Assembly (NCBI GenBank): GCA_003157445.1
Contig: PMJN01000451.1
Span: forward strand, 1 to 17,935
Source: Micrococcales bacterium
Lineage (GTDB): Bacteria; Actinomycetota; Actinomycetes; Actinomycetales; Dermatophilaceae
Direction of reading: 5' to 3'
DNA: 17,935 nt
In this document: piece by piece, positions 1,341-16,726 of the stretch
Position numbering within the stretch: position 1 is the stretch's first letter
Layout of the letters: every line of letters starts with the position of its first letter
Position numbers and translations under genes: made by a program
The notes under the pieces: model-generated
What the model was told of the DNA's origin: nothing
The model's input: the letters and a program-made list of their open reading frames with translations, nothing else
The model's database searches: none

Positions 1341-1360
1341 GGCAGAACCCCTTGACATGG

Positions 1361-4249: not shown

Positions 4250-4537
4250 CTACGCCGCCCGCACCAATTCCGGAAAGCACTCTTCCCAGTTACCGCGCAC
4301 CCGCCGGGGCAACCACAGGCGACCCCACACATCAAGCAGGACCCGTCCGTTGACATACCTGCACACCTCGACGGTCGAGGCCGCTTCCCGCAGCACGCGT
4401 TCGTAGACGACTCTGCGGTCGGCGTCCTCACCTAGGTCGTAGGAACACCCTGGGCCCCAGTCGATTGTCACGGGCAACTCGACCGTTCCTGAGGCCGGGC
4501 CGGTCAAATCGTCCAGCCGAGCCGGGGGCCAACTCAC
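4250..4537 (-). CDS. Small partner protein of the interrupted AbiEii-like toxin (putative antitoxin)
   Basis: This is a 95-residue protein of a type that often precedes AbiEii-like genes in actinobacteria. Its recognisable features are LDDLTGPASGTVELPV at the start, DLGEDADRRVVYERVLREA in the middle, and VWGRLWLPRRVRGNWEECFPEL near the end. It ends three bases before the toxin start, so the two form an operon. An antitoxin role is inferred from gene order and not from a DNA-binding domain, since I see no clear helix-turn-helix. The GTG start at 4537 overlaps the end of the TOTE helicase fragment by about eight bases and has no strong ribosome binding site. With its toxin broken, the gene may be a remnant or may act in trans. 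Confidence 0.66.
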   Translation of the reverse strand: MSWPPARLDDLTGPASGTVELPVTIDWGPGCSYDLGEDADRRVVYERVLREAASTVEVCRYVNGRVLLDVWGRLWLPRRVRGNWEECFPELVRAA

Positions 4538-5137
4538 TGATGCGTCGGCGCCATTGGTCAGCCAGAGCCTTGCGGTCGACCAGGATCAGCGTTGAGGTGG
4601 CGTGGTCGGCTGTGAGGGCACACGCGATCACGGTCTTGCCCGCTTCTGGCGGAGCCACCAGGACTCCCAGGTCGTGTGTGGACAGAGCCTTTCGGGCCGC
4701 CTGTTGGCCATCGTCGAGGGTCGCGGAGAATGTGTATGCTTTTGAATCGCCGCCGACGCGGTGGTCGGTGACCTCCAGACAGCTCCCGAGCTGTTCGATG
4801 AGATCCGTAAGAGCTTCCAGCAGTCCCCGGGGCAGTATGAGGCCACCGTCGCGAGTTTCGTCGTAGCTGCGCACGAACCGGGGCACGTTCCAGGTCGACG
4901 CTCTACGTCGTTGGCGCTCGTAAAACACCGGGTTGGGCATTGATGCTGCGTGCTTCAGAGTTGCAGCCAAAGCCGGGGTGAGATCCCCACCCTCAAGCGT
5001 CACACCGGCACCCAGCCGAACGCGGACGATCGCAGGAGCCTGGGCCCTTCTGGCGACGCCATTATCGAAGGCAGTTCCTTCTTCATAGTCATCACCGGCG
5101 CAGTCCTTCGAGACTTGGCGCACACTTTCAACGGCAC
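4530..5137 (-). pseudogene. Fragment of a TOTE-type conflict-system DEAD/DEAH helicase
   Basis: About 170 residues (roughly 5036 to 4530) match the middle of the long primase-helicase proteins of TOTE conflict systems. The order is VRVRLGAGVTLEGGDLTPALAA in pieces, KHAASMPNPVFYERQRRRAS, TWNVPRFVRSYDET, LILPRGLLEALTDL, CLEVTDH, then helicase motif I LGVLVAPPEAGKTVIACAL and motif Ia STLILVDRKALADQW. The family normally has APPGAGKT or APPGSGKT at motif I; here one glycine is glutamate. No start codon or N-terminal primase portion is present: upstream the frame simply runs antisense into the acuI gene. The 3' side ends at RISEL, exactly where the small toxin-partner gene starts; DECH and C-terminal helicase motifs are absent. 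It is a two-sided remnant and cannot encode a working helicase. Confidence 0.78.
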
Positions 5138-6145
5138 TCAGCCGAGGTTGACCACGATGCGGCCCCGAACCGTTCCTTTGAGCAACGCGTTGAACGCCTG
5201 CGGCAGTTCGTCGAAGCCGATGGTGCTCGTCATCCGGTCGAGGTGGTCGGGCCTGAGGTCGGTCGCCATCCGTGCCCAAAGCCGTTGTCGCAGAGCGTCG
5301 TCGAAGTACCCGGTGTTGATCCCGAGCAGGTTTACGGCGCGCAGAATGAACGGCAGTACCGAGGTGGGCAGCTCGTGACCGCCCGCGTTGCCAAAGGCCG
5401 CGATACTGCCCCCGCGCTGCATCGTTCGGATCAGCCACGCGAGGGTCTGCCCACCCACGGAGTCGACAGCCCCGGCCCAACGGGCACTCTCCATCGGCTT
5501 AGCTGGGGCGTCGGGCGTCGGCACCTGCTCGACGGACGCCGCCCCGATCGATCGCAGGTACACCTCGGCGTCGAGTTGCCTGGTCAGGGCAACCGGCTCG
5601 TATCCAAGGCGAGCGAGCATGCCAATCGCCAGACTGGCAACGCCGCCAGTCGCCCCCGTCACGGCCACCGGGCCCTGGCTGGGGCGCAGCCCGTTGGCCT
5701 CGAGTCGGTGGATGGCGAGTGCCGCGGTCAGACCCCCGGTACCGAGGGCCATCGACTCCCACGGGGTCAGACCTTCGGGCAGTCGCACCGCCCACGCCGA
5801 CGGCACACGCACCCACTGCGCGTAGCCGCCGTCGTGTTCCTCACTCAGTCCAAACCCGGTCACCAGGACCTGGTCGCCGGGCAGGTATGCAGGATCAGCC
5901 GACTCGACGACCTCCCCCACCACGTCAATGCCGCCGATGAGCGGGAGGCGGCGCACCACCTTGCCCCGACCCGTCGCAGCCAAGGCGTCCTTGTAGTTGA
6001 CGCTGGAGTATGAGGCCCGCAGGAGCAGCTCGCCTGAGCCGATCTCGGTGACCGAGACCTCGGTGAGTTCCCCGTGACCGAGCCCGGCATCTGCGACGAT
6101 GCGTAACGCCCTGCTGACCTGCGTGGTGCCCGCCTCCGCGCTCAC
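5138..6145 (-). CDS. acuI: AcuI/YhdH-type NADPH-dependent enoyl-CoA (acryloyl-CoA) reductase
   Basis: Zinc-independent medium-chain dehydrogenase/reductase, 335 aa against about 325 in E. coli AcuI. Landmarks are YSSVNYKDALAATGRGKVV near residue 50, LPLIGGIDVVGEV, DQVLVTGFGLSE, the cofactor loop VAVTGATGGVASLAIGML, GAVDSVGGQTLAW, GSIAAFGNAGG and a C-terminal GTVRGRIVVNLG. Characterised AcuI reduces acryloyl-CoA to propionyl-CoA with NADPH. As the last gene of the operon its GTG start (6145) overlaps the gcdH stop in GTGA. Its job here is unclear, since the rest of the operon is oxidative. It could remove reactive enoyl-CoA esters or reduce a pathway enoyl-CoA. Substrate is not readable from sequence. 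Confidence 0.85.
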   Translation of the reverse strand: MSAEAGTTQVSRALRIVADAGLGHGELTEVSVTEIGSGELLLRASYSSVNYKDALAATGRGKVVRRLPLIGGIDVVGEVVESADPAYLPGDQVLVTGFGLSEEHDGGYAQWVRVPSAWAVRLPEGLTPWESMALGTGGLTAALAIHRLEANGLRPSQGPVAVTGATGGVASLAIGMLARLGYEPVALTRQLDAEVYLRSIGAASVEQVPTPDAPAKPMESARWAGAVDSVGGQTLAWLIRTMQRGGSIAAFGNAGGHELPTSVLPFILRAVNLLGINTGYFDDALRQRLWARMATDLRPDHLDRMTSTIGFDELPQAFNALLKGTVRGRIVVNLG

Positions 6146-7323
6146 CCGCGGAAGGCACTGTGACCGGTGATGGCCTGGCCGATGATCATCTGGTGCACCT
6201 CGGACGTGCCCTCGTAGGTGAGCACCGACTCGAGGTTGTTAGCGTGCCGCATGACCGGGTACTCGAGGGTGATGCCGTTGGCGCCCAACAGGGTTCGGCA
6301 CTGACGCGCGATGGCGATCGACTCGCGTACGTTGTTGAGCTTGCCAAGGCTGACCTGCTCCGGGCGCAGCTGGTGGGCGTCCTTGAGCTTGCCCAAGTGC
6401 AGTGCGAGCAGCATCCCGTTGCCGAGGGCCACTGTCATGTCGGCCAGCTTGAGCTGGGTCGCCTGGTAGGCGGCCAGCGGCTTGTCGAAGATCCGGCGGT
6501 CCTGGCTGTAGGCGATCGTCGTGGTGAGGCAGTCGCGCGCAGCGCCGAGAGCCCCGAAGAGGATGCCGAAGCGCGCCTCGTTCAGGCACGACAGCGGCCC
6601 CCCCAGCCCGCGCACGTTCGGCAGCACCGCCGACTCGGGCAGGCGCACCCCCGACAGCACGAGCTCGGAGGTCACCGACGCACGCAGCGACATCTTGCTG
6701 GTGATCTTCGGCGCCGAGAACCCGGGTGTGTCGGTCGGCACGACGAACCCGCGGATACCGTCGTCGGTCTGCGCCCAGACGACCGCCACGTCAGCGATCG
6801 ACCCGTTGGTGATCCACATCTTCGTGCCGTCGAGCACCCAGTCGGAGCCGTCCCGGCGGGCCCGCGTGCGCATGCCGGCCGGGTCCGACCCGAAGTCGGG
6901 CTCGGTCAGGCCGAAGCAGCCGATCGCCTCACCCGCGGCCATCGGTGGCAGCCACTGCTGCTTCTGCTCCTGCGAGCCGTGCTTCCAGATCGCGAACATC
7001 GCCAGCGATCCCTGCACCGACACGAGCGAGCGGATGCCGGAGTCGGCAGCCTCGAGCTCGACGCAGGCCAGGCCGTAGGCAGTGGCGCTGGTGCCCGCGC
7101 AGCCATACCCCTGCAGGTGCATGCCGAGCAGGCCGAGGCTGCCGAGCTCCTTGGCCAGCTCGCGGGCCGGCACGGTGCCCGACTCGTACCACGCCTCGAT
7201 ATGCGGACGCACCCTGTCGTCCATCACCGCGCGGACGGCATCGCGCATCGCGCGGTCGTCCTCGTTGATGAGCGCGTCGATGCCGTAGAGCTCGAGCGGA
7301 GCCTGCGCGTTCTTGGTCGCCAT
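6142..7323 (-). CDS. gcdH: Glutaryl-CoA dehydrogenase-like acyl-CoA dehydrogenase
   Basis: FAD acyl-CoA dehydrogenase of the glutaryl-CoA dehydrogenase branch, which oxidises and decarboxylates glutaryl-CoA to crotonyl-CoA and passes electrons to ETF. Supporting features are DSGIRSLVSVQGSLAMFAI in the N-terminal domain, IGCFGLTEPDFGSDP, KMWITNGSIADVAVVWAQ, and the C-terminal GANGITLEYPVMRHANNLE followed by TYEGTSEVHQMIIGQAITG. Catalytic Glu is about residue 371 of 393. I chose ATG at 7323, nine bases after AGGA; the in-frame TTG at 7329 is too close to it. That ribosome binding site overlaps the stop of the preceding dehydrogenase gene. Its position after the beta-oxidation genes fits glutaryl-CoA as the product of pimeloyl-CoA shortening. 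Dicarboxyl substrate preference is inferred from the family. Confidence 0.88.
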   Translation of the reverse strand: MATKNAQAPLELYGIDALINEDDRAMRDAVRAVMDDRVRPHIEAWYESGTVPARELAKELGSLGLLGMHLQGYGCAGTSATAYGLACVELEAADSGIRSLVSVQGSLAMFAIWKHGSQEQKQQWLPPMAAGEAIGCFGLTEPDFGSDPAGMRTRARRDGSDWVLDGTKMWITNGSIADVAVVWAQTDDGIRGFVVPTDTPGFSAPKITSKMSLRASVTSELVLSGVRLPESAVLPNVRGLGGPLSCLNEARFGILFGALGAARDCLTTTIAYSQDRRIFDKPLAAYQATQLKLADMTVALGNGMLLALHLGKLKDAHQLRPEQVSLGKLNNVRESIAIARQCRTLLGANGITLEYPVMRHANNLESVLTYEGTSEVHQMIIGQAITGHSAFRG

Positions 7324-7337
7324 CGTCAATGGTCCTT

Positions 7338-8489
7338 TCAGAGGAAGGCGCTGACGCCGGTCTCGGCGCGCCCGATGAGGAGCTTCTGGATCTGGGAGGT
7401 GCCTTCGTAGAGCGTCATGACGCGGGCGTCACGCATGTACTTCTGGACCGGGTACTCGTCAACGTAGCCGTACCCACCAAAGGCCTGGATGGCGAGGTTT
7501 GCCGCCTTGACCGCGGCTTCGGACGCGAAGTACTTGGCCTTCGAGGCCTCGACCCCAAACGGCTCACCGCGCTCGATCAGGTCGGCGGCCCGCCATACCA
7601 GCAGGCGGGCGGCATCCGCGTCGATCGACATCTCGGCGATCATGTCCTGGATCATCTGGAAAGATGCCAGCGGCCGGCCGAACTGCTGGCGCTCTTTCGA
7701 GTAGGCAACGGTGGCCTCGAGGCAGCCCTGGATGATGCCGACGCACCCGGCGCCCACCGACACCCGGCCCTTGTCGAGCGAGTGCATGGCGATAGTGAAT
7801 CCCTGCCCTTCCTCGCCGAGCCGGGCCGAGACCGGGACCCGCACCCCGGTAAGGAAGATCTCGGAGGTGGCCTGACCGCGCAGCCCCAGCTTGCCGTGGA
7901 TCTCGCGGCGCTCGAACCCCGGTGTGCTGGTCGGCACCAGAAACGCGGAGACACCCTTGGGGCCCGACCCGCCGGTGCGGGCGAAGAGGAGGCAGACGTC
8001 GGCCCAGGTGCCGTTCGTGATGAATATCTTCTGGCCGTCGATGACGTAGTCGTCAGCGTCGCGCACGGCCTTGGTCCGCAGGTTCCCGGCATCCGACCCT
8101 GTGTCGGGCTCGGTGAGCCCGAAGCAGCCCAGCGACTCACCCGTGGCGATCTTGCGCAGCCAGTCCTGCTTCTGCTCCTCGGTGCCGTAGCCGAGGATCG
8201 ACTTGCCGACCAGGCCCATCGACACCGAGACGATGCCGCGCACCGACGAGTCGGCCCGGCCGAGCTCCTCCATACCAAGGCAGTAGGTGATGTAGTCGCC
8301 ACCGACGCCGCCGTACTCCTCGGGGATCGTCAGGCCGAAGAAACCCAGCTCGGCGAGCTTCGGCAGGAGCGTGGTGTCCACCTGCTCGGCACGGTCCCAG
8401 GCTGCGCGATGGGGCACGACCTCTTTGTCGAGGAATTCGCGGGCCAGCGCCCGGAACGCCTGCTGCTCTTCGTTCAGGGACAGGTCCAT
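7338..8489 (-). CDS. Short/medium-chain acyl-CoA dehydrogenase (proposed pimeloyl-CoA dehydrogenase)
   Basis: Full-length (383 aa) acyl-CoA dehydrogenase close to butyryl/short-chain members. It starts MDLSLNEEQQAFRAL, has LGCFGLTEPDTGSDA and IFITNGTWADVCLLFA for FAD and substrate binding, YSKERQQFGRPLASFQ, AIQAFGGYGYVDEYPVQKY and the terminal LYEGTSQIQKLLIGR with the catalytic Glu near residue 362. It needs ETF, which is not encoded in this window. In the pathway it would introduce the 2,3-double bond into pimeloyl-CoA. Rhodopseudomonas uses a two-subunit PimCD for that step, so this role is inferred from operon position only. The ATG shares one base with the previous stop (TGATG), and GGAG lies inside the last codons of that gene. 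Confidence 0.85.
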   Translation of the reverse strand: MDLSLNEEQQAFRALAREFLDKEVVPHRAAWDRAEQVDTTLLPKLAELGFFGLTIPEEYGGVGGDYITYCLGMEELGRADSSVRGIVSVSMGLVGKSILGYGTEEQKQDWLRKIATGESLGCFGLTEPDTGSDAGNLRTKAVRDADDYVIDGQKIFITNGTWADVCLLFARTGGSGPKGVSAFLVPTSTPGFERREIHGKLGLRGQATSEIFLTGVRVPVSARLGEEGQGFTIAMHSLDKGRVSVGAGCVGIIQGCLEATVAYSKERQQFGRPLASFQMIQDMIAEMSIDADAARLLVWRAADLIERGEPFGVEASKAKYFASEAAVKAANLAIQAFGGYGYVDEYPVQKYMRDARVMTLYEGTSQIQKLLIGRAETGVSAFL

Positions 8490-9427
8490 CAGATCTCCTC
8501 AGCCATGTTGTCAGTCTTCACAGTGTCGTGTTCCGTCGTGTTGTCGAGCTCTTCCTTGCTGCCGTGCTCGTCGTAGCGGTACCAGCCGTGACCGGTCTTG
8601 CGGCCGAGGCGCCCGGATTCCACCAGCTCGGCGAGGCTGCGCTGGGGTTGGTCGCGCGGGTCGCCGGTGAGCTCGAAGCGCTCCCGCTTAACGTAGTAAC
8701 CGATGTCGAGGCCAGTGAGGTCCATGAGCTCGAACGGCCCCATCGGGTAGCCGAGGGCCGTTCGACAGGCCCGGTCGATGTCGGCGATATCGGCTACGCC
8801 GTCCTCGAGCAGGGAGATCGCCTCGTCGCGCACCGCGTTGAGGATGCGGTTGGCGACGAACCCCGGGATCTCCTTCTTGAGCACGACCGGCTCCTTGCCG
8901 ATGCGGTGCACGAACGCCACCACCGCGGCCTGTGTCTGGTCGCTCGTCGCCGGCCCGCGTACGACCTCCACGCAACGCATGATCAAAGCAGGGTTGAAGA
9001 AGTGCAGGTTCACGACCCGGTCGGGGCGCGCGGTGGCATCGGCCAGCTGCGAGGGCATCAGGCTCGAGGAGTTGCTGGCCAGGATCGTGTGCGGCGGGCA
9101 GAGCTCGTCGAGGTCGGCGAACAGCGCCCGCTTCACGTCAAGCTTCTCGATGACGGCCTCGATGACCAGGTCGGCCTCGGCCACGGCGGGCGCCAGCTCG
9201 GTCGAGAACGCGAGGCGGTCGAACGCCGACGCCCGCTCGCGCGCCGTGAGCTTGCTCTTCTCGACCGATCGCTGGGTGAACTGTTCGAGAGAGGTGCGGG
9301 CACCGCCCAGGGCGTCGGCGTTGAGGTCGACGAGTGTGACCCGGCATCCGGCGAGGGCGCAGACCATGCCGATGTGCGCGCCCATGGCGCCCGACCCGAT
9401 GACGGCGACGGTCTGTATGTCGGCCAT
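8489..9427 (-). CDS. 3-hydroxyacyl-CoA dehydrogenase
   Basis: NAD-dependent, single-function L-3-hydroxyacyl-CoA dehydrogenase (PaaH/FadB2-like, 312 aa). The Rossmann motif GSGAMG is at residues 11-16, followed by an acidic residue in LVDLN. The active site shows SNSSSL (119-124), LHFFNP with His 142, and Glu at about 154, then GFVANRILNA and GYPMGPFELMDLTGLD in the C-terminal domain. The tail after GRKTGHGWYRYD is longer and more acidic than usual. It would oxidise 3-hydroxypimeloyl-CoA and possibly 3-hydroxybutyryl-CoA. ATG at 9427 has AGGGG eight bases upstream. ATG at 9433 is only two bases from that site, although it makes a classic ATGA overlap with the hydratase stop, so the start is uncertain by two codons. 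Confidence 0.88.
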   Translation of the reverse strand: MADIQTVAVIGSGAMGAHIGMVCALAGCRVTLVDLNADALGGARTSLEQFTQRSVEKSKLTARERASAFDRLAFSTELAPAVAEADLVIEAVIEKLDVKRALFADLDELCPPHTILASNSSSLMPSQLADATARPDRVVNLHFFNPALIMRCVEVVRGPATSDQTQAAVVAFVHRIGKEPVVLKKEIPGFVANRILNAVRDEAISLLEDGVADIADIDRACRTALGYPMGPFELMDLTGLDIGYYVKRERFELTGDPRDQPQRSLAELVESGRLGRKTGHGWYRYDEHGSKEELDNTTEHDTVKTDNMAEEI

Positions 9428-9429
9428 CG

Positions 9430-10221
9430 TCATCGCCCCTGGAACTGTGCGGGGCGCTTCTGCAGGAAGGCGTTCGTGCCCTCGACCTTGTCGTCGGTCT
9501 GGTACAGGACCGTCTGGGCGAGCCGCTCGATGAGCTGACCGGTGCGCAGGTCGGTGTCCATGCCGGCCCGGATGACCAGCTTCGCCAGTCGTACGGCCAC
9601 CGGCCCCTTGGTCAGGATGGAGGCCGCCGTCGCCCGTGCCTGGTCGAGCAGCTCGCCGGGCTCGACCACCGAGGTGACCAAGCCGTACCGCTCGGCGTCG
9701 ACGGCCGAGACGAGCCGCCCGGTGAGCACCATCTCAACCGCACGGCCGACCCCAACGATGCGGGCGAGCCGCTGCGTGCCGCCCGCGCCGGGCAGCACCG
9801 AGAGGTTGGTCTCGGGCAGGCCGAACCGCGCGGTCGAGGACGCGATGCGGATGTCGCACGCCATCGCGAGCTCGCAGCCGCCCCCGAGTGCGAACCCGTT
9901 CACGGCGGCGATAGTGGGTTTCTCGAAGGCCTCGACCTCGTCGAAGGCGCGTTGCATCGCACCCTCGAGGCCGGTGGCCATCGTGTAGCTGCGCACCTGG
10001 CTGATGTCGGCGCCGGCGATGAAGGCCTTCTCCCCGGCACCGGTGAACACGACCGCGCCGACGGCATCGTCGTCACGGAGGTCGGCGAGAGCATGGTGCA
10101 GGTCGGCGAGGACCTGCCGGCTCAGGGCGTTGCGCACCTCGGGGCGGTTGACGGTCACCAGAGCGACGCCGCCAGCTGTGTTGACCAGGAGGGTCTCAAG
10201 CGTTAGCTCAGTAGTACTCAT
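9430..10221 (-). CDS. Enoyl-CoA hydratase (crotonase family), candidate BadK
   Basis: Crotonase-fold hydratase of 263 aa. Oxyanion-hole segments are AFIAGADIS (67-74) and NGFALGGGCEL (108-118). Both catalytic glutamates of true hydratases are present: Glu 137 in GLPETNLSVLPGAGG and Glu 163 in RAVEMVLTG. That separates it from the BadI/MenB-like crotonase in the same operon. It is the only hydratase here, so it would have to serve cyclohex-1-ene-1-carboxyl-CoA (the BadK step), pimelenoyl-CoA and perhaps crotonyl-CoA, or share these with enzymes coded elsewhere. ATG at 10221 follows GGAAGGA by a normal distance, 15 bases after the thiolase stop. Confidence 0.87.
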   Translation of the reverse strand: MSTTELTLETLLVNTAGGVALVTVNRPEVRNALSRQVLADLHHALADLRDDDAVGAVVFTGAGEKAFIAGADISQVRSYTMATGLEGAMQRAFDEVEAFEKPTIAAVNGFALGGGCELAMACDIRIASSTARFGLPETNLSVLPGAGGTQRLARIVGVGRAVEMVLTGRLVSAVDAERYGLVTSVVEPGELLDQARATAASILTKGPVAVRLAKLVIRAGMDTDLRTGQLIERLAQTVLYQTDDKVEGTNAFLQKRPAQFQGR

Positions 10222-10236
10222 GGTGATTCCTTCCGG

Positions 10237-11433
10237 TCACGGGGCTTCGAGGAGCATGGCGACGCCCTGCCCGACTCCGACGCACATGGTCACGACTGCT
10301 CTGCGAAGTCCACGGTCGGCCAGCTCGATGGCGGCGGTGAGGGCGAGGCGGGCTCCACTGGCCCCGAGCGGGTGCCCGAGGGCGATGGCTCCGCCGTGGG
10401 GGTTGACGTGTTCGGCGTCGTCGGGCAGGCCCAGGGCTCGCAACACGGCCAGCGACTGCGAGGCGAACGCCTCGTTGAGCTCGATGAGGTCGATGTCGGC
10501 CAGCGTCAGGCCGGTGCGGTCGAGCAGCGCGCGGGTCGCCGGCTCTGGGCCCATCCCCATGGTGCGCGGCGGGACGCCCACCGATACGGCAGATACCACG
10601 CGCGCCATCGGCGTGAGGCCATACCGCCCGACGGCGGCCTCGGATGCGACAAGCAGAGCCGCCGCACCGTCGTTGACCCCCGATGCGTTACCCGCCGTGA
10701 CGCTGCCGCCGGAGAACAGCGGCTTGAGCCTCGCCAAGCTCTCGGGTGTCACCGGGCGTGGGTGCTCGTCGACGTCGACGGCTATCTCACCCTGACGTCC
10801 TGGGATCTTCACGGGGGCGATCTCCCTCGCCATCCGGCCGGAGGCGATCGCCTGAGCCGTGCGCTCCTGCGAACGCAGCGCGAAAGCGTCCTGGTCCTTG
10901 CGACTCACGCCGTACTCATCGGCGACGATCTGCGCGGTCTCGGGCATCGAATGGGTGCCGTGGGCGGCCTCCATGCGCGGGTTGACCAGCCGCCACCCGA
11001 TCGTCGTGTCGAACATCTGCGCCGAACGGGCAAATGCCGCGGTCGCCTTGGGCACGACGAACGGCGCGCGGGTCATCGACTCGACGCCGCCGGCGATCAT
11101 CAGGTCGGCATCCCCGGCGCGGATGGCGCGGGCCGCAGCGGACACCGCGTCGAGCCCGGAGCCGCAGAGTCGGTTGACGGTGAGCCCGGGAACGCTCACC
11201 GGGAGGTCGGCCAGCAGTGCCGCCATCCGGGCGACGTTGCGGTTGTCCTCACCGGCCTGATTGGCGCAGCCCAGGATCACGTCATCGAGGCGCTCCCAGT
11301 CCACCGAAGAGTGGCTCTCGACCACCGACCGCACCACGTGGGCGGCCAGGTCGTCGGTGCGCACAGAGGCCAACGCTCCCCCGTAGCGCCCGAAGGGGGT
11401 GCGCACCCCCGAGACGAGGTAGGCGTGGCTCAC
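10237..11433 (-). CDS. Acetyl-CoA C-acyltransferase (thiolase), PcaF-like
   Basis: Degradative thiolase of 398 aa. The nucleophilic Cys is residue 90 in VNRLCGSGLDAV. The second active-site set is His 354 in GGAIALGHPLGASG and Cys 384 in VVTMCVGVGQG. The stretch GCANQAGEDNRNVARMA is what I recognise from 3-oxoadipyl-CoA thiolases (PcaF/PaaJ). This suggests a preference for dicarboxylic 3-oxoacyl-CoAs and fits cleavage of 3-oxopimeloyl-CoA into glutaryl-CoA and acetyl-CoA. Substrate preference is an inference. The GTG start at 11433 overlaps the aliA stop (GTGA). No protocatechuate or phenylacetate genes are nearby, so an ordinary beta-ketoadipate role is less likely. Confidence 0.87.
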   Translation of the reverse strand: MSHAYLVSGVRTPFGRYGGALASVRTDDLAAHVVRSVVESHSSVDWERLDDVILGCANQAGEDNRNVARMAALLADLPVSVPGLTVNRLCGSGLDAVSAAARAIRAGDADLMIAGGVESMTRAPFVVPKATAAFARSAQMFDTTIGWRLVNPRMEAAHGTHSMPETAQIVADEYGVSRKDQDAFALRSQERTAQAIASGRMAREIAPVKIPGRQGEIAVDVDEHPRPVTPESLARLKPLFSGGSVTAGNASGVNDGAAALLVASEAAVGRYGLTPMARVVSAVSVGVPPRTMGMGPEPATRALLDRTGLTLADIDLIELNEAFASQSLAVLRALGLPDDAEHVNPHGGAIALGHPLGASGARLALTAAIELADRGLRRAVVTMCVGVGQGVAMLLEAP

Positions 11434-13064
11434 GCCTGGTCCCCGACGATGGCACGCAGGGCGAACTTCTGGATCTTGCCCGACGGGGTGCTCGGCAACG
11501 CGTCCAGCACCTCGAGGCGCTCAGGCCAGTACTGCTTGGCCATCCCCTTCTCGCGCAGGAACTCCTGCATCTCCTCGAAGGTGAACTCGGTGACCCCGGG
11601 GGCCAGGGTCACGCAGGCGCAGGCACGTTCCTGCACGCGCGGGTCGGGGATGCCGACGACCGCGACCGAGGCAAGCTTCGGGTTCTCGTACAGGGTGTTC
11701 TCGACGTAGACCACCGGGATGTTCTCGCCACCGCGGATGATGATGTCCTTCGTCCTCCCGGACAGGCTGACATAGCCGTCGGCGTCGATCCTGGCCAGGT
11801 CGCCGGTGTCGAACCAGCCGTCGTGGAACTGCTCCCTGGTCGCGTCCAGCCGCTTGGCGTAGCCCACGAAGAGCGAGGGACCGCGCACGTGGAGGCGGCC
11901 TTCCTGCCCCGACTCCAGCGGCGCGCCCGCCAGGTCGACCACCCGGATGTGCATGCCCGACCACGGGAAGCCGTCGGTCTTGGTGATCTTGTCGAGCGGG
12001 TCGCCAGGGATGCCGAGGGTGACCAGGGCGTTCTCGGTCTGCCCCCACCCGCCGAGCACGATGAGGTTGGGCAGCAGCTGATGGGCCTCGGTGACCATGA
12101 CGCGCGGGATCGGAGCGCCCATGCAGCAGAAGAGCGCGAGCGAACCGAGGTCACGCGCGGTCTTGGCGACAGCAGCCACCACGTCGTGCAGGAAGGGCGT
12201 GGCTCCTGCGGTGTAGGTGACGCCGTGCCGCTCGACCAGCTCGAGAAACACCTCCGCATTCCAGAGATCCTGCAGGATGGCGGTGGCGCCGAGGCTCAGC
12301 GGCAGGCGGGCGCCATACAGCAGCCCGGTCAGGTGGGCCAGCGTGGAGGCCATGTGCACGACTGTGTGGTCGGTCATGCCAAGCCGCTCGGGCAGCGGAC
12401 GCAGAGCCGCGACCAGGGTGTTGTGCGTGTGCATGACCCCCTTGGGCTCGCCAGTCGTGCCCGAGGTGAAGATGAGCAGGGTGACATCGTTGGGGTCCGG
12501 CCGTAGCGCGGCCAGTGCCTCAGCCGAATGCCGCTCCTCACCCGGCGTGGCGACGAACTCCTCGTAGGAGAGATCCCCCTCGTCGCCCTGGCGGTCAATG
12601 ACCATGACGTTCTGCACGGTCGGCCAGTCCTTGCGCAGACGCGCGACCATCGCCGGGTACGAGAACGTCCGGAAGCTGCTCGGGACGATAACCAGACGCG
12701 AGCCGGCCAGACCCACCATGAAGCCCACCTCACGCTCGCGGTAGATGGGGATCAGGGGGTTGCTGATCGCGCCGATGCGCGACACCCCGAGGTGTATGAC
12801 GACCCACTCGATCCAGTTTGGGACCTGGAACGAGACGACATCCCCCGAGGTGATCCCGAGCTCGAGCAGACCGGCCGCGAAACGGTCCACCTCGGCCCTC
12901 AGCTGGGCAAAAGTGATCTGCCGGCGCGAGTCGACGTATGCCACCTTGTCGGGGGTGCGCGAAGTGACGTCGTCGAGGTAGTCGGTGATGGTGCGGTCAG
13001 TCCAGTAGCCCTGCTGCGTGTACGCCTCGATGAGCTCGGGCGTGAGGATGGTTTCGAAAGCCAT
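11430..13064 (-). CDS. aliA: AliA-like cyclohexanecarboxylate-CoA ligase (AMP-forming)
   Basis: Acyl-CoA synthetase of the ANL superfamily, 544 aa. It activates a carboxylic acid through an acyl-AMP. Motifs in order are the P-loop FTSGTTGEPKGVMHTH (199-214), GGWGQTEN, DGWFDTGDLARIDADGY, SGRTKDIIIRGGENI and the C-terminal PSTPSGKIQK with the catalytic lysine. The N-terminus MAFETILTPELIEAYTQQGY with WTDRTITDYLDD is what I recall of cyclohexanecarboxylate-CoA ligases. Substrate is supported mainly by the neighbours AliB, BadH and BadI. Start is ATG at 13064 with AGGAGA eight bases upstream, 14 bases after the badH stop. The open frame extends upstream to 13559, but that part is antisense to badH codons and is not used. 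Confidence 0.85.
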   Translation of the reverse strand: MAFETILTPELIEAYTQQGYWTDRTITDYLDDVTSRTPDKVAYVDSRRQITFAQLRAEVDRFAAGLLELGITSGDVVSFQVPNWIEWVVIHLGVSRIGAISNPLIPIYREREVGFMVGLAGSRLVIVPSSFRTFSYPAMVARLRKDWPTVQNVMVIDRQGDEGDLSYEEFVATPGEERHSAEALAALRPDPNDVTLLIFTSGTTGEPKGVMHTHNTLVAALRPLPERLGMTDHTVVHMASTLAHLTGLLYGARLPLSLGATAILQDLWNAEVFLELVERHGVTYTAGATPFLHDVVAAVAKTARDLGSLALFCCMGAPIPRVMVTEAHQLLPNLIVLGGWGQTENALVTLGIPGDPLDKITKTDGFPWSGMHIRVVDLAGAPLESGQEGRLHVRGPSLFVGYAKRLDATREQFHDGWFDTGDLARIDADGYVSLSGRTKDIIIRGGENIPVVYVENTLYENPKLASVAVVGIPDPRVQERACACVTLAPGVTEFTFEEMQEFLREKGMAKQYWPERLEVLDALPSTPSGKIQKFALRAIVGDQA

Positions 13065-13078
13065 GACGGAATCTCCTG

Positions 13079-13822
13079 TCAGCTCATCGTGAGTCCGCCA
13101 CTGACGCTGACGGTCTGTCCGGTGATGAAGTTGGCCTCGTCCGAGGCAAAGAAGCAGACGGCGTTGGCTACGTCTGCAGGGGTGCCGAGCCGGCGGAACG
13201 GGATGGCGCGGGTGAGGCCCTCGCGGAGCTTGTCGCTGTCGCCGCCCATCGATGCGAACAGCGCGGTGTCGGTCGGGCCGGGGCAGATGACGTTGATGTT
13301 GATCTGGTGACGGGCCATCTCGCGGGCCGCGGCCTTGGAGAATGCGATGACCGCACCCTTGGCCCCGGAGTACACGGCCTCGCCCGACGAGCCGACCCGA
13401 CCTGCATCCGAGCCCAGGTTCACCACCGATCCGCTGCCCTGAACAGACATGATCGGCAACACCGCCTTGCAGGTGTTGAGCACGCCGACGTAGTTGATGC
13501 CGATGACCCGATCCCACAGGTCGGGCTCGGAGTCCACGAAGGGGACGGACTTGTCCCAACCGGCGTTGTTCACGAGAACGTCGATGCGACCGAACCGGCT
13601 CTGCACGTCGGCCACCACGGCCGCGACGCCGGCTTTGTCGGTCACGTCGACCTGGTACGAAACGGCACCTTTGCCGATCTCGTCGGCAGCCGCGGCGGCG
13701 GCGTCTCCGTTGACGTCGGTGACGACGACGGTAGCTCCTTCGGAGGCAAGCTTCTCGGCGATGGCCCGGCCGATGCCGGCTCCGGCGCCGGTAACCAGGG
13801 CAATCTTGTTCTCGAGGCGCAT
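13079..13822 (-). CDS. badH: BadH-like 2-hydroxycyclohexanecarboxyl-CoA dehydrogenase (SDR)
   Basis: Classical short-chain dehydrogenase, 247 aa. It has the TGAGAGIG cofactor loop (11-18), NNAG (85-88), catalytic Ser 138, Tyr 151 and Lys 155 (YSGAK), and CPGPTDTALF. Many stretches agree with what I remember of Rhodopseudomonas palustris BadH: VNNAGWD, SDAGRVGSSGEAVY, FSKAAAREMARH, and the end FITGQTVSVSGGLTM. BadH oxidises 2-hydroxycyclohexane-1-carboxyl-CoA to the 2-keto ester with NAD. ATG at 13822 follows AAAGGA. An 86-base gap separates it from aliB, the largest inside the operon; I see no convincing terminator or promoter there. Confidence 0.88.
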   Translation of the reverse strand: MRLENKIALVTGAGAGIGRAIAEKLASEGATVVVTDVNGDAAAAAADEIGKGAVSYQVDVTDKAGVAAVVADVQSRFGRIDVLVNNAGWDKSVPFVDSEPDLWDRVIGINYVGVLNTCKAVLPIMSVQGSGSVVNLGSDAGRVGSSGEAVYSGAKGAVIAFSKAAAREMARHQININVICPGPTDTALFASMGGDSDKLREGLTRAIPFRRLGTPADVANAVCFFASDEANFITGQTVSVSGGLTMS

Positions 13823-13908
13823 CAGGGGTCCTTTCGGTCAGGTATGCGAGGACTCATTCACGAGGCGGGCGGGGTGTGTGCTGTCGTCCTATGACGGTCG
13901 GATGACGA

Positions 13909-15054
13909 TCAGGGGGCGAACTCGCGGCCCAGCAGGGCGCGGGAGATGACGAGCTTGGAGACCTGCTCGGTGCCGTCACCGATCTCCAGACCGATGACGT
14001 CACGCAGGCGCTGACCCATCGGGCTCTCCGACGCGTAGCCGAGGTGGCCGAACGTCAGCAAGCAGCGGTGGATGACCTCGGCGGACAGCTTCGGCGCCCA
14101 GAACTTGGCCATCGCGGCCTCGGCGCTGTGCTCAAGGTCGTTGTCCTTCTTCCACAGAGCCTCAAGGCACACGAGGCGGGCACCGCGCATGTGCGTGGCG
14201 CACTCCGCGAGAGGAAAGGCGACACCCTGGAAGGTGCCAATCGGCTTGCCGAAGGTGACCCGGTCGCGGGCCCACTGCAGGGTCTCGTCCAGAGCAGCCT
14301 GGGCGGTGCCGAGGCAGCACAGACCGATGATGGCCCGCGAGTAGTCGAAGCCCTGCATGACCGAGACGAAGCCGTCACCGATCTCGCCGACAAGCTCGGC
14401 GCGGGTCACCCGCACTCCGTCGAAATGCAGTGACGCCCGCCCGTTGGAACGCCCGCCGAAGTCGTCGAACCCGGCCCGAGTAACGCGCTCGTCATCCAGG
14501 TTGACGTAGAAGGCGCTAACGCCGCGGGCGCCCCGCCCACCCGTGCGGGCGAGCACCAGCCCGGCGTTCGCATACAGGCCGAGGGTGATTGAGGTCTTCT
14601 CGCCATAGAGCAGCCAGCCGTCGCCGTTTTCGACGGCCTTGAACTCAAGGGTCGCGGCGTCGGTGCCATGACCCGGCTCGGTCACTGCCAGGCACGGGAT
14701 CGAGGTGCCATCGGCGATCCCGGGAAGCCAGCTGGCCTGCTGCTCGGAGGTGCCGTTGCGCACGAGCACGTCGCTGATTAGGGCCGTGACGATGATGATG
14801 TATGACGCGTTGAAGTCGGCTCGGCCGATCTCCTCGGCGGCGATGCCCGCTAGCAGCGCGCTCGCGCCCTGGCCGCCGAACTCGTCGGGGATGCGCAGCC
14901 CGGTCAGACCCATGCCAGCGAGGGTAGGGACCAGCTCCGGCCGCATCTTGCCCGCTTTGTCGTCGCTCTGGTAGTAGGGGGCGAGGTTCTTGGTGGCGAA
15001 CCGGCGCAGCTCTTGCCGGTAGTCCTCGATGTCTGGGTCGAGCGCGAAGTCCAT
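13909..15054 (-). CDS. aliB: AliB-like cyclohexanecarboxyl-CoA dehydrogenase
   Basis: Acyl-CoA dehydrogenase, 381 aa, clearly apart from the two others in the operon. It has PCLAVTEPGHGTDA, LYGEKTSITLGLYANAGLVLARTG, GFDYSRAIIGLCCLGTAQAA, VTFGKPIGTFQGVAFPLAE, AMAKFWAPKLSAEVIHRCL and a terminal IGDGTEQVSKLVISR. At the position of the usual catalytic Glu (YEGT) it has Asp, near residue 360. I recall the same GDGT in cyclohexanecarboxyl-CoA dehydrogenases of the AliB type, so this supports the assignment. It would form cyclohex-1-ene-1-carboxyl-CoA, with electrons to ETF. ATG at 15054 follows GAGAGG by six bases, nine bases after the badI stop. Confidence 0.84.
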   Translation of the reverse strand: MDFALDPDIEDYRQELRRFATKNLAPYYQSDDKAGKMRPELVPTLAGMGLTGLRIPDEFGGQGASALLAGIAAEEIGRADFNASYIIIVTALISDVLVRNGTSEQQASWLPGIADGTSIPCLAVTEPGHGTDAATLEFKAVENGDGWLLYGEKTSITLGLYANAGLVLARTGGRGARGVSAFYVNLDDERVTRAGFDDFGGRSNGRASLHFDGVRVTRAELVGEIGDGFVSVMQGFDYSRAIIGLCCLGTAQAALDETLQWARDRVTFGKPIGTFQGVAFPLAECATHMRGARLVCLEALWKKDNDLEHSAEAAMAKFWAPKLSAEVIHRCLLTFGHLGYASESPMGQRLRDVIGLEIGDGTEQVSKLVISRALLGREFAP

Positions 15055-15063
15055 GTCGGCCTC

Positions 15064-15861
15064 TCAGTGCCAGTTGACGTGCTGGTTGAAGTCGGGGGTG
15101 CGTTTCTCGGCGAAGGCTGCGGCGCCCTCGAGGCCCTCGGGCGAGGCGGTGAAAAGATCGAGGGCCGACATCGCGAGGTTCGACAGGCCGGCCTGGTGGT
15201 CGGTGTCGGCGTTGAACGACTGCTTGAGGAAACGGATGGCGGTCGGGCTCTTTTCGGCGATCTCGGCCGCCCAGGACTTTGCCTCGGGGAGCAGCTGATC
15301 GGCCGGGACGACCTTGTTGACCAGGCCCATCTCCTTGGCCTCGGCGGCGTCATACAGACGGCACCAGAACCACATCTCGCGGGCCTTCTTCTCGCCGACG
15401 ACGCGGGCGAGGTAGGCCGAGCCGAAACCGGCGTCGAACGAGCCCACCTTCGGGCCGGCCTGGCCGAAGCGGGCGGTCTCGCTGGCGATGGAGACGTCGC
15501 AGAGGACGTGCAGCACGTGGCCGCCGCCGACCGCGATGCCGTTCACCGCCGCGATGACGGGCTTGGGGATGTCGCGCATCAGCTTGTGTAGGTTGCCGAT
15601 CTCGAACATGCCGCTCTCACTCGGGCCGTAGTCGCCAGTCTCGGCGCGTTGCTTGACGTCGCCCCCGGTACAGAACGCCTTCTCACCCGCTCCGGTGAGG
15701 ATGACGGCCTGTACCGTGCGGTCGGCCCAGGCGAGACGGAAGGCCTTGATGAGTTCGTCGACCGTGCGGGCACGGAATGCGTTGTAGCGCTGCGGACGGT
15801 TGATCGTGATGACGGCCGTCGTGTCCTCGACGGTGTAGTCGACATCTTCGAACTGACTCAC
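15064..15861 (-). CDS. badI: BadI-like 2-ketocyclohexanecarboxyl-CoA hydrolase (ring opening)
   Basis: Crotonase-fold enzyme, 265 aa, of the BadI/MenB branch. BadI hydrolyses 2-ketocyclohexane-1-carboxyl-CoA to pimeloyl-CoA. Landmarks are SQFEDVDYTVED at the start, NRPQRYNAFRARTVDELIKA, AFCTGGD (62-68), VGGGHVLHVLCDVSIASETA, FGQAGPKVGSFDAGFGS (132-148) and VVGEKKAREMW. It lacks the hydratase glutamate pair. MenB (naphthoate synthase) shares the GPKVGSFD motif and is the main alternative. The BadH, AliA and AliB neighbours and the absence of menaquinone genes favour BadI. Start is GTG at 15861 (MSQFED); the longer open frame upstream runs through the operators and into the regulator and is rejected. 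It is the first gene of the operon, with about 45 bases of leader to the operator array. Confidence 0.85.
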   Translation of the reverse strand: MSQFEDVDYTVEDTTAVITINRPQRYNAFRARTVDELIKAFRLAWADRTVQAVILTGAGEKAFCTGGDVKQRAETGDYGPSESGMFEIGNLHKLMRDIPKPVIAAVNGIAVGGGHVLHVLCDVSIASETARFGQAGPKVGSFDAGFGSAYLARVVGEKKAREMWFWCRLYDAAEAKEMGLVNKVVPADQLLPEAKSWAAEIAEKSPTAIRFLKQSFNADTDHQAGLSNLAMSALDLFTASPEGLEGAAAFAEKRTPDFNQHVNWH

Positions 15862-15905
15862 AGGAACCGACTCTCTGTTCGGCCGAGTGAGTGCCCCGCC
15901 GAAAC

Positions 15906-15950
15906 TTGAACGAATATTCATTGAACGAACATTCACTGAACTATGATTCA
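15906..15950. promoter_or_regulatory. Array of three 15-bp operator-like repeats (TGAA-N6-TTCA) in the divergent promoter region
   Basis: Three head-to-tail 15-mers fill this interval exactly: TTGAACGAATATTCA (15906-15920), TTGAACGAACATTCA (15921-15935) and CTGAACTATGATTCA (15936-15950). Each contains an imperfect palindrome TGAA-N6-TTCA, the usual shape of a TetR-family operator. They lie between badI and the TetR gene. On the plus strand TATGAT (15942-15947) inside the third copy is a plausible -10 element for the regulator, with TTGAAC (15921-15926) upstream at a short 15-base spacing. Repressor binding would therefore block the regulator's own promoter and probably the operon's. The repeats are seen; the binding protein is inferred. 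Confidence 0.75.
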
Positions 15951-15972
15951 ACGCTACGATGTTGTCAAGGGC

Positions 15973-16036
15973 TCCGACAGTCAGGGGCTCCGACAGGAGG
16001 ACCTTCCGACAGGAGGACCTTCCGACAGGAGGAATC
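15973..16036 (+). repeat. 16-bp tandem repeat carrying Shine-Dalgarno sequences upstream of the TetR gene
   Basis: The unit TCCGACAGGAGGACCT occurs at 15989-16004 and again, identical, at 16005-16020. A third copy at 16021-16036 matches for 13 bases and then becomes AATC. A degenerate fourth unit, TCCGACAGTCAGGGGC, precedes them at 15973-15988 in register. Each of the three good copies contains AGGAGG. Only the last one (16027-16032) is at a working distance, seven bases before the ATG at 16040. The array is probably in the 5' leader of the regulator mRNA. Confidence 0.85.
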
Positions 16037-16039
16037 TCG

Positions 16040-16726
16040 ATGCAGACCACGCAGAGGGCAGAACAGTTGGTTGAGCCGGGCCGACGCACTGCAGGGATGG
16101 CCAGGGGCTCAAGGGGCACGCGCGGACCGGCACGGGAGGAACGCATCGAACGGCGGCGGCGCGAGGTGCGCGAGGCGGCCACTCGCGTCATGATCGTGAC
16201 CGGATACCACGGAATGTCGATGCAGGCGGTCGCCGATGAGGCTCAGATGAGCGTAGGCCTGATCTACAGCTACTTCGGAGGAAAGGAGGAGCTGCTTCAG
16301 TCGGTCATCGTCGACATCCTCGACGAGTTCCGTGTGCGAGTTCCGGAGTCGATGGCCAGTGCGGGTGGCGACCCCGTGGATCGCCTGCGTCAGGGCTTCC
16401 AGACCTTCTGCACCATCATCGACGAGAAGCGCGAAGGTGCCCTGCTCGCCTACCGCGAGACGCAGACCCTGCCCGAGTCGGGCCAGAAAGAGATCATCCG
16501 GCTCGAGCTCGAGACGACCGAGCCGTTCCAACAGGCGGTGGAGGACGGCATCGCGAGCGGGATGTTCCGGCCGGTCGACGCCGAGTTGGTCACGCACAAC
16601 CTCAAGATGGCGGCTCACAGCTGGGCCCTGAAGCACTGGCACCTTGCACCCCGAATGACGCTGCAGGAGTATATCGACCGGCAGCTCGAGCTTGCCCTGT
16701 TGGCGATGTACGCGACCTCGCGCTGA
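16040..16726 (+). CDS. TetR/AcrR-family transcriptional regulator, probable repressor of the bad/ali operon
   Basis: TetR-family protein of 228 aa. After a basic, low-complexity N-terminal extension of about 35 residues (RRTAGMARGSRGTRGPAR), the DNA-binding domain covers about 38-85: RRRREVREAATRVM, then YHGMSMQAVADEAQMSVGLIYSYFGGKEELL. The rest is a helical ligand-binding domain with LLAYRETQTLPESG and AAHSWALKHWHL. ATG at 16040 follows AGGAGG by seven bases. An in-frame ATG at 15959 would place the tandem repeat inside the protein and has no ribosome binding site. It is divergent from the operon across three TGAA-N6-TTCA sites. The inducer could be an acyl-CoA of the pathway; this is inference from context. 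Confidence 0.88.
   Translation: MQTTQRAEQLVEPGRRTAGMARGSRGTRGPAREERIERRRREVREAATRVMIVTGYHGMSMQAVADEAQMSVGLIYSYFGGKEELLQSVIVDILDEFRVRVPESMASAGGDPVDRLRQGFQTFCTIIDEKREGALLAYRETQTLPESGQKEIIRLELETTEPFQQAVEDGIASGMFRPVDAELVTHNLKMAAHSWALKHWHLAPRMTLQEYIDRQLELALLAMYATSR

What the first reader, a model, noticed from the sequence alone, without database searches (positions are those of the whole stretch)
5138..15861. Single ten-gene operon that could convert cyclohexanecarboxylate to crotonyl-CoA
The genes match every step in order: ligase (AliA), ring dehydrogenase (AliB), hydratase, BadH, BadI, a full beta-oxidation set for pimeloyl-CoA, and glutaryl-CoA dehydrogenase. In Rhodopseudomonas palustris the ring genes and the pimeloyl-CoA genes are, as I recall, in separate clusters. 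Here they are one tightly coupled transcription unit in an apparent actinobacterium. Family matches come from remembered sequence patterns; substrates come from context.
Basis: partly seen in the sequence, partly recalled or inferred. Interest (0 to 1): 0.7.

Follow-up and report, generated by a model that had tools for sequence, protein, structure and literature searches.

The report
Actinobacterial cyclohexanecarboxylate degradation operon
One bacterial gene block appears to carry nearly everything needed to open and burn a six-membered carbon-ring acid of the kind found in oil; the pathway is known from other bacteria, but this packaging, its predicted switch and its altered ring-opening enzyme are a new variant.

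Summary
Ten same-strand genes fill 5138-15861, with gaps of -4 to +86 bases: BadI-, AliB-, BadH- and AliA-like, thiolase, hydratase, 3-hydroxyacyl-CoA dehydrogenase, acyl-CoA dehydrogenase, GcdH and an AcuI-like reductase. Best reading: a bad-ali/aab-type route from cyclohexanecarboxylate to crotonyl-CoA, probably repressed by the divergent TetR at 16040-16726. The ring hydrolase belongs to a clade apart from proteobacterial BadI. It keeps the catalytic Ser/Asp but lacks a tyrosine present in 12 of 12 proteobacterial BadI-type and 5 of 5 MenB rows (0 of 42 in its clade). New here: three tandem TGAAYN4RTTCA operators at the operon promoter, a motif present in 35 of 39 related loci. Three Streptomyces share the ten-gene order. 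The pathway, and linkage of bad-ali, aab and gcdH genes, are published for Gram-negatives; an induced Rhodococcus cluster too. New variant of a known kind. Substrate, activity and co-transcription are untested.

The parts
15064..15861 (-). BadI-like 2-ketocyclohexanecarboxyl-CoA hydrolase (265 aa, GTG start), actinobacterial-type clade
   Evidence: badI 327.2 bits (cut-off 467.6), MenB model 348.5 (380); tree; Ser141/Asp143 kept, Tyr258-equivalent is Thr238
13909..15054 (-). AliB-like cyclohexanecarboxyl-CoA dehydrogenase (381 aa), Asp360 at the usual catalytic-base position
   Evidence: TIGR03207 best match, 400.7 bits, cut-off 575.35; AliB clade 100/100; Asp in 21 of 21 rows of that clade
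13079..13822 (-). BadH-like 2-hydroxycyclohexanecarboxyl-CoA dehydrogenase, SDR (247 aa)
   Evidence: TIGR03206 best match, 286.9 bits, cut-off 431.2; tree weakly resolved near it
11430..13064 (-). AliA-like cyclohexanecarboxylate-CoA ligase (544 aa)
   Evidence: TIGR03208 best match, 579.3 bits, cut-off 792.3; clade with proteobacterial AliA, 94/88
10237..11433 (-). 3-oxoadipyl/3-oxopimelyl-CoA-type thiolase (398 aa)
   Evidence: TIGR02430 619.3 bits over cut-off 597; NF006551 634.1 over 605
9430..10221 (-). Enoyl-CoA hydratase (263 aa), the only hydratase of the operon
   Evidence: best model NF004475, 279.9 bits, below cut-off 394; PF00378
8489..9433 (-). 3-hydroxyacyl-CoA dehydrogenase (314 aa)
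   Evidence: PF02737 and PF00725; NF006124 313.4 bits, cut-off 508
7338..8489 (-). Acyl-CoA dehydrogenase, presumed pimelyl-CoA dehydrogenase (383 aa)
   Evidence: PF02771/02770/00441; clade apart from AliB and GcdH. Against: its best models are acryloyl-CoA reductase NF042972 (392.9/640) and glutaryl-CoA dehydrogenase NF045552 (315.2/470); pimC/pimD only 102.8 and 127.8
6142..7329 (-). Glutaryl-CoA dehydrogenase GcdH (395 aa)
   Evidence: 644.7 bits to PDB 3swo, 382.6 to 1siq; Arg100 and Glu373 in the shared motifs. Against: NCBIfam NF045552 182.5, cut-off 470
5138..6145 (-). AcuI/YhdH-family reductase-like MDR protein (335 aa), role unknown
   Evidence: TIGR02823 393.1 bits over cut-off 297.25; AcuI equivalog 319.7, below 440
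15940..15968 (-). Promoter-like site TTGACA-17-CATAGT of the operon
   Evidence: 10 of 12 matches; the scan found 1 site, shuffles 0.9, so only its place argues for it
15907..15950 (.). Three tandem operator-like palindromes TGAAYN4RTTCA at 15907, 15922, 15937 (15-bp pitch)
   Evidence: 3 in the window, 0.01 expected; motif in related loci
16040..16726 (+). Divergent TetR-family regulator (228 aa), probable repressor
   Evidence: PF00440 and PF17932; divergent TetR beside BadI also in L017, L018, L019, L021, L035, L038, L077, L078

Best explanation
The operon encodes a CoA-thioester route, needing no oxygen for its chemistry, by which the host can grow on cyclohexanecarboxylate or a close ring acid. 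AliA makes the CoA ester and AliB dehydrogenates it. The hydratase adds water, BadH oxidises the alcohol, and the BadI-like enzyme hydrolyses the 2-keto ring to pimelyl-CoA. The second acyl-CoA dehydrogenase, the same hydratase, the 3-hydroxyacyl-CoA dehydrogenase and the 3-oxoadipyl-type thiolase shorten pimelyl-CoA to glutaryl-CoA plus acetyl-CoA. GcdH makes crotonyl-CoA. The divergent TetR represses the operon, and probably itself, through tandem TGAAYN4RTTCA operators and is released by an acyl-CoA of the pathway. Shown here: gene content, order, conservation, catalytic residues, operator motif. Inferred: substrates, dual use of the hydratase, TetR binding and inducer, co-transcription.
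For: Family matches. AliB clade with Asp at the base position in 21 of 21 rows, including a Paraburkholderia AliB that passes its cut-off. AliA clade. Dicarboxyl-type thiolase over cut-off. GcdH in the operon suits a C7 product; the best other match in the 69%-complete genome outside the window is 43% identical with 2 stops. Same ten genes in order beside a divergent TetR in L017, L018, L019, and nine of the ten in L035 and L078. Motif at cluster promoters in 35 of 39 loci. A Rhodococcus cluster beginning badI, badH, ligase, GcdH is induced about 70-290-fold on cyclohexane- and 180-800-fold on cyclopentanecarboxylate.
Against: The four ring enzymes miss their equivalog cut-offs. The ring hydrolase lacks the conserved tyrosine. 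Only one hydratase. Gene 8 is a weak match to pimC/pimD and fits an acryloyl-CoA reductase model best; NCBIfam's glutaryl-CoA dehydrogenase model NF045552 fits gene 8 (315.2) better than gene 9 (182.5), both below 470. The Rhodococcus cluster has GcdH and yet responds more strongly to the five-membered ring, so GcdH does not prove a six-membered ring. No uptake or ETF gene among the ten. No expression or growth data for this gene layout.
Confidence: 0.75

Rival explanations
1. The natural substrate is a substituted or different ring acid (alkyl- or hydroxycyclohexanecarboxylate, a perillate-type monoterpene acid, cyclopentanecarboxylate, or the cyclohexyl end of omega-cyclohexyl fatty acids), processed by the same chemistry. 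This is compatible with the general scheme above.
For: The 46-row BadI-like clade also holds L012, L013, L016 and L065, whose neighbourhoods differ from the bad-ali set (CoA-transferase, P450, extra SDR or dehydrogenase genes). PMC9795900 mentions badKHI copies suggested for monoterpenes. The Rhodococcus cluster responds to cyclopentanecarboxylate, more strongly than to cyclohexanecarboxylate.
Against: A dicarboxyl-type thiolase over cut-off and GcdH in the same operon suit an unbranched pimelyl-CoA (reasoning); AliA- and AliB-type enzymes.
Confidence: 0.35
2. The 15064-15861 protein is a menaquinone-pathway MenB and the cluster is a general fatty-acid or dicarboxylic-acid beta-oxidation operon.
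For: Its best NCBIfam score is a MenB model, 348.5 bits, below its cut-off of 380, and sources name many relatives 'naphthoate synthase' (others '2-ketocyclohexanecarboxyl-CoA hydrolase').
Against: By the alignment it lacks both the Tyr-97 and Tyr-258 equivalents, which hydrogen-bond the substrate carboxyl in E. coli MenB (PMC3637252, passages). The genome has a separate MenB-like gene on C508 with both tyrosines. It sits apart from 5 MenB rows with 100/99 support. AliA-, AliB- and BadH-like neighbours.
Confidence: 0.03
3. The hydration of cyclohex-1-enecarboxyl-CoA is done by a hydratase encoded elsewhere (a badK gene), so the operon is incomplete for the ring steps.
For: PMC9795900 says several bad-ali clusters lack badK and in most cases have a badK-like gene elsewhere; a 44% identical hydratase lies on contig C250.
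Against: One hydratase hit lies at the same place in L017, L018, L019, L021, L035 and L078, with no second one found beside it by search with the window's genes.
Confidence: 0.35

Closest known systems
bad-ali plus aab clusters of Aromatoleum sp. CIB and relatives (PMC9795900; abstract, passages and sections 21-22 read, figures not held)
   Same: Same set of reactions from cyclohexanecarboxylate to glutaryl-CoA; gcdH linked in Thauera phenolivorans and other Gram-negatives; works with and without oxygen
   Different: There divergent operons and a MarR-type BadR with a CAAN4TTG operator; here one same-strand run, divergent TetR, TGAAYN4RTTCA operators, a BadI clade without the tyrosine. The paper says Gram-positive clusters have a TetR gene usually in the same direction; its Figure 6 could not be seen
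chcpca cluster of Rhodococcus aetherivorans BCP1 (PMC5906575; abstract, passages and section 17 read)
   Same: BadI, BadH, ligase and GcdH genes with TetR genes; induced on cyclohexane- and cyclopentanecarboxylate
   Different: Its eight listed ORFs hold no thiolase or 3-hydroxyacyl-CoA dehydrogenase. In 15 Gordonia loci of like order the ligase is 27-29% and the 'aliB'-place dehydrogenase 35-37% identical to the window's ligase and gene 8; the two Gordonia loci put in the trees (L025, L039) fall outside the AliA and AliB clades, with Gly at the usual base position
badHI-aliBA-badK operon of Rhodopseudomonas palustris (via PMC9795900; pim gene location recalled)
   Same: AliA, AliB, BadH, BadI reactions in one operon
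   Different: Part of anaerobic benzoate degradation; has its own badK; pimelyl-CoA genes elsewhere (recalled)
Same-strand clusters on alphaproteobacterial plasmids (Salipiger abyssi pPABY2, Paracoccus sp. MC1862)
   Same: BadH-, BadI-, AliB- and AliA-type genes, a long 3-hydroxyacyl-CoA dehydrogenase-type gene and pcaF in one run
   Different: MarR regulator; no GcdH annotated in the stretch fetched

Membership tests
bad-ali cyclohexanecarboxylate pathway | AliA, AliB, BadH, BadI homologues side by side | tested here: met
   AliA, AliB and BadH models are the top matches of their genes and badI the third of gene 1; 11430-15861
bad-ali cyclohexanecarboxylate pathway | The four pass NCBIfam equivalog cut-offs | tested here: not met
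   579.3/792.3, 400.7/575.35, 286.9/431.2, 327.2/467.6 bits; the Paraburkholderia control passes all four
bad-ali cyclohexanecarboxylate pathway | BadK hydratase | tested here: inconclusive
   One hydratase; the root split of the hydratase tree is weak, 56/91
bad-ali cyclohexanecarboxylate pathway | Growth on and induction by cyclohexanecarboxylate | not testable with these tools
   Needs bench work
BadI (TIGR03210) | Catalytic Ser/Asp and oxyanion-hole glycines | tested here: met
   Ser141, Asp143, Gly67, Gly113; 42 of 42 rows of the clade
BadI (TIGR03210) | Equivalog cut-off 467.6 bits | tested here: not met
   327.2; L015 546.7 and L014 491.0 pass
BadI (TIGR03210) | Tyrosine equivalent to E. 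coli MenB Tyr258 (invariant in the proteobacterial BadI-type rows compared) | tested here: not met
   12 of 12 proteobacterial rows, 0 of 42 in the window's clade
MenB | Tyr97 and Tyr258 equivalents | tested here: not met
   Asp77 and Thr238 in the window protein by this alignment
AliB (TIGR03207) | Groups with cut-off-passing AliB; Asp at the base position | tested here: met
   100/100 clade of 21 rows, all Asp
GcdH | Arg and Glu of the human GCDH motifs (roles recalled) | tested here: met
   SGIRS and TYEGT aligned to 1siq
GcdH | NCBIfam NF045552 glutaryl-CoA dehydrogenase cut-off 470 | tested here: not met
   Gene 9 182.5, gene 8 315.2; human and mycobacterial-type enzymes were not run as controls
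3-oxoadipyl-CoA-type thiolase | TIGR02430 cut-off | tested here: met
   619.3 over 597
Pimelyl-CoA dehydrogenase PimC/PimD | TIGR03204/TIGR03203 cut-offs | tested here: not met
   Gene 8: 102.8/623.85 and 127.8/652.7
AcuI acrylyl-CoA reductase | NF051456 equivalog cut-off | tested here: not met
   319.7 below 440; subfamily TIGR02823 met
chcpca cluster | Order badI-badH-ligase-gcdH-aliB-tetR | tested here: not met
   Window order differs and its TetR is divergent

The most novel reading that the evidence does not exclude
Actinobacteria use a second kind of BadI: a ring-opening hydrolase that works without the active-site tyrosine shared by MenB and proteobacterial BadI. It is the constant core around which different ligases, dehydrogenases and full beta-oxidation sets were assembled into single units under one TetR/TGAAYN4RTTCA regulon, and its substrate range may include five-membered and substituted rings.
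Probability: 0.35. Interest if true: 0.55.

Novelty: new variant of a known kind. Interest (0 to 1): 0.4.

Why it matters
Cyclohexanecarboxylate is a model of the toxic naphthenic acids of hydrocarbon deposits (PMC5906575, abstract). A self-contained operon with its own predicted switch would be a cassette for their aerobic breakdown and a biosensor lead. It also gives a testable motif (TGAAYN4RTTCA) for finding such clusters, and a residue difference that asks how ring opening works without a tyrosine that MenB and proteobacterial BadI keep.

Tried and rejected
MenB for gene 1: rejected on residues, tree and a second MenB-like gene in the genome. Chance assembly: rejected by conserved order in named genomes. 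Rfam (gathering threshold) and tRNA scans of the window gave nothing. A promoter scan alone was uninformative (1 found, 0.9 expected). Naming the host: rpoB came in pieces below the cut-off, rplB was not found, and only RecA-like fragments turned up, so the host stays an unnamed 3.8-Mb, 551-contig bin, 69% complete. That it is an actinobacterium rests on the kinship of these genes; no marker tree was made. Two of four genomes of its genus, itself included, hold a close BadI; the other one (L010, 78%) has a BadH beside it that is only 52% identical. BadH tree: the window pairs with L038 at 83/93, and the fork with other ring-cluster BadH is 88/49, so placement is weak. Hydratase tree: root split weak, inconclusive on BadK. 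No structure prediction was run. Literature: all ten searches are. In the rows listed I saw no full single-operon actinobacterial case and nothing on this BadI difference; but searches listed only part of their hits, subscription papers are mostly missing, Figure 6 of PMC9795900 (which draws Gram-positive clusters) is not held, and Zampolli et al. 2020 was not read. PMC4591350 was seen as passages and section 25.

Samples given to calls: of 90 plasmid hits listed (1560 and 1830 records matched), 21 regions were fetched. and both trees used 29 chosen loci, one search used 22; one search used all loci then held from L010 on with a BadI hit plus L002, except L056 and L057.
Full report
OBSERVATION. 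The window carries ten minus-strand genes from 15861 down to 5138: BadI-like, AliB-like, BadH-like, AliA-like, thiolase, enoyl-CoA hydratase, 3-hydroxyacyl-CoA dehydrogenase (HAD), acyl-CoA dehydrogenase, GcdH and an AcuI/YhdH-family reductase. By coordinates the gaps are 9, 86, 14, -4, 15, -4, -1, 8 and -4 bases. A TetR gene lies divergently at 16040-16726. The window has no tRNA and no Rfam match at gathering thresholds. A terminator scan of 4900-16200 found about what shuffles give (4 against 3.4).

FAMILY TESTS. NCBIfam gives AliA, AliB and BadH as the best models of their genes, but below cut-off: 579.3/792.3, 400.7/575.35 and 286.9/431.2 bits. For gene 1, badI scores 327.2/467.6, behind two MenB models (348.5/380 and 330.2/342.7), also below cut-off. 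As a positive control, the annotated Paraburkholderia plasmid proteins pass: BadI 546.7, AliB 743.3, AliA 919.4, BadH 479.9. The thiolase passes the 3-oxoadipyl-CoA thiolase cut-off (619.3/597). The reductase passes TIGR02823 (393.1/297.25) but not the AcuI equivalog (319.7/440). Gene 9 (GcdH) matches PDB 3swo and 3sf6, both named glutaryl-CoA dehydrogenase, with 644.7 and 629.3 bits, and 1siq with 382.6; the SG-x-R-S arginine and TYEGT glutamate align. Against that, NCBIfam's glutaryl-CoA dehydrogenase model NF045552 gives gene 9 only 182.5 and gene 8 315.2 (cut-off 470). Gene 8's best model is an acryloyl-CoA reductase (392.9/640), and pimC and pimD score 102.8 and 127.8. So gene 8 as pimelyl-CoA dehydrogenase rests on context.

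RING HYDROLASE. A tree of 63 sequences separates 5 MenB rows from 58 others (100/99). It splits the latter into 12 proteobacterial BadI-type rows (100/98) and 46 rows (100/99) that hold the window and its actinobacterial relatives. Of the 12, six are annotated badI in their records (L014, L015, L061, L062, L066, L067); two of these were tested and pass TIGR03210. The tree's root is for drawing only, and long branches (the genome's own MenB, L065) are flagged by the tool. On the alignment the window keeps Ser141 and Asp143 (E. coli Ser161, Asp163), Gly67, Gly113 and Gln134/Gly136/Trp164 (recalled as the MenB bicarbonate site), each in 42 of 42 rows of its main clade. The Tyr97 equivalent is absent from every BadI-type row. 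The Tyr258 equivalent is present in 5 of 5 MenB and 12 of 12 proteobacterial rows, in 0 of 42 rows of the main clade (Thr 30, Ala 6, Val 4, Gly 1, Ser 1) and in 0 of the 4 outlying rows (L012, L013, L016, L065). PMC3637252 (passages) calls Asp-163 catalytically essential and describes Tyr-97 with Tyr-258 as an active-site motif that hydrogen-bonds the carboxyl of a substrate analogue in MenB. So gene 1 is unlikely to be MenB, and it is a BadI variant rather than the TIGR03210 type. The genome holds a separate MenB-like gene on contig C508 with both tyrosines.

DEHYDROGENASES AND LIGASE. In a tree of 59 acyl-CoA dehydrogenases from 29 chosen loci and the window, the window AliB falls in a clade of 21 (100/100) with proteobacterial AliB; Asp takes the usual base position in 21 of 21. 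Genes 8 and 9 fall in separate clades. In the two Gordonia loci included (L025, L039), the dehydrogenase at the place of 'aliB' in the published Rhodococcus order lies outside the AliB clade and has Gly there; some acyl-CoA dehydrogenases carry their base elsewhere (recalled), so this bears on naming, not on activity. The window AliA groups with proteobacterial AliA (16 rows, 94/88); the Gordonia ligases do not. The BadH tree is weakly resolved around the window.

CONSERVATION. A genome-contig search with gene 1 gave 41 loci, 39 of them close relatives, L017-L055 (a single-protein query, so biased to close kin). Three Streptomyces (L017-L019) carry the divergent TetR and all ten genes in the same order. 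Nocardia paucivorans (L035) and an unnamed single-contig genome (L078) carry nine; no reductase hit. Intrasporangium calvum (L021) matches up to gene 8, where its contig ends, but has no HAD hit between hydratase and gene 8. Two other layouts occur: TetR-BadI-AliB-BadH-AliA-GcdH-hydratase-HAD-dehydrogenase in 7 loci (L022, L024, L044, L046, L048, L050, L055), and BadI-BadH-ligase-(GcdH)-dehydrogenase-TetR in 15 of 16 Gordonia loci (GcdH hit in 9 of the 15; L031 is cut short). In 396 sampled genomes of the host's phylum, 5 including the host have an AliB match at E <= 1e-90. Of the other four, L078 has the layout; L077 has TetR, BadI, AliB and BadH; L076 has AliB, thiolase, HAD, gene 8 and GcdH but no BadI, BadH, AliA or hydratase hit in the stretch; L079 has AliB only. 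The type is uncommon.

REGULATION. TGAAYN4RTTCA occurs three times in the window, at 15907, 15922 and 15937, and nowhere else in it; 0.01 are expected. These sites overlap the -10 of a TTGACA-17-CATAGT promoter between the divergent starts. In the 39 related loci the motif occurs 64 times in 747 kb; first-order Markov sequences gave a mean of 0.95 and at most 4 in 20 trials. Of the 64, 46 begin within 260 bases upstream of the BadI or TetR start. The other 18 begin 1-40 bases past a TetR start that I extrapolated from the window's TetR, whose N-terminus may be longer, so they probably belong to that promoter too. In one search, 35 of 39 loci have at least one; L032, L034, L052 and L054 have none. 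The motif is unlike the CAAN4TTG of BadR (PMC9795900). Release of the TetR by an acyl-CoA is inferred by analogy with BadR and CHC-CoA.

MECHANISM. See Best explanation. One hydratase must serve both the ring and the chain, or a second one acts from elsewhere (44% identical copy on C250). The reductase has no assigned step and gave no hit in two relatives with the other nine genes, so it looks accessory. GcdH suits a C7 dicarboxyl-CoA, but the Rhodococcus cluster also has GcdH and responds more strongly to cyclopentanecarboxylate, so ring size is not settled.

KNOWN OR NEW. PMC9795900 (abstract, passages, sections 21-22) shows bad-ali degradation with and without oxygen, wide distribution including Gram-positives with TetR genes usually in the same direction, co-clustering of aab genes, and gcdH linkage in Thauera phenolivorans and other Gram-negatives. 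PMC5906575 (abstract, passages, section 17) shows induction of the Rhodococcus chcpca cluster. In the rows listed by ten searches I did not see a single actinobacterial unit running from ligase to GcdH with a divergent TetR, the operator motif, or the missing tyrosine; the limits of those searches are given under Tried and rejected. Hence a new variant of a known kind.

Noticed in passing
714-1358 (-) and 17189-17773 (+): AbiEi-type antitoxin-like genes on both sides of the operon (PF13338; 23.6 bits, just below the cut-off of 25, and 36.0).
   Followed up: no
4428-5480 (-): An ORF with a short ResIII/helicase stretch (26.1 bits) beside the operon's end; it looks like a gene fragment.
   Followed up: no
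1638-2177 (+): pRiA4b ORF-3-like plasmid-type protein (PF07929, 184.2 bits), hinting at a mobile or island neighbourhood.
   Followed up: no
about 15990-16033: A 16-base unit (CCGACAGGAGGACCTT) repeated about three times in tandem just before the TetR start (read).
   Followed up: no
L011 13001-14543: A Mycobacterium dioxanotrophicus plasmid carries BadI-clade (79%) and BadH-like (52%) genes after GroEL, NDMA-dependent alcohol dehydrogenase and aldehyde dehydrogenase genes.
   Followed up: partly
L025 14575 and L039 14470: The Gordonia dehydrogenase at the place called aliB in the published chcpca order is not in the AliB clade and has Gly at the usual base position in both loci examined, so that name may be wrong.
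   Followed up: partly
L022, L024, L044, L048, L055: Mosaic clusters: AliB groups with proteobacterial AliB while BadI is of the actinobacterial type.
   Followed up: partly
L022, L028: A Sporosarcina (Bacillota) record holds an actinobacterial-type cluster with 82% identical BadI, and the tree tool files 'Kocuria sp. cx-455' under Acidobacteriota: possible label slips.
   Followed up: no
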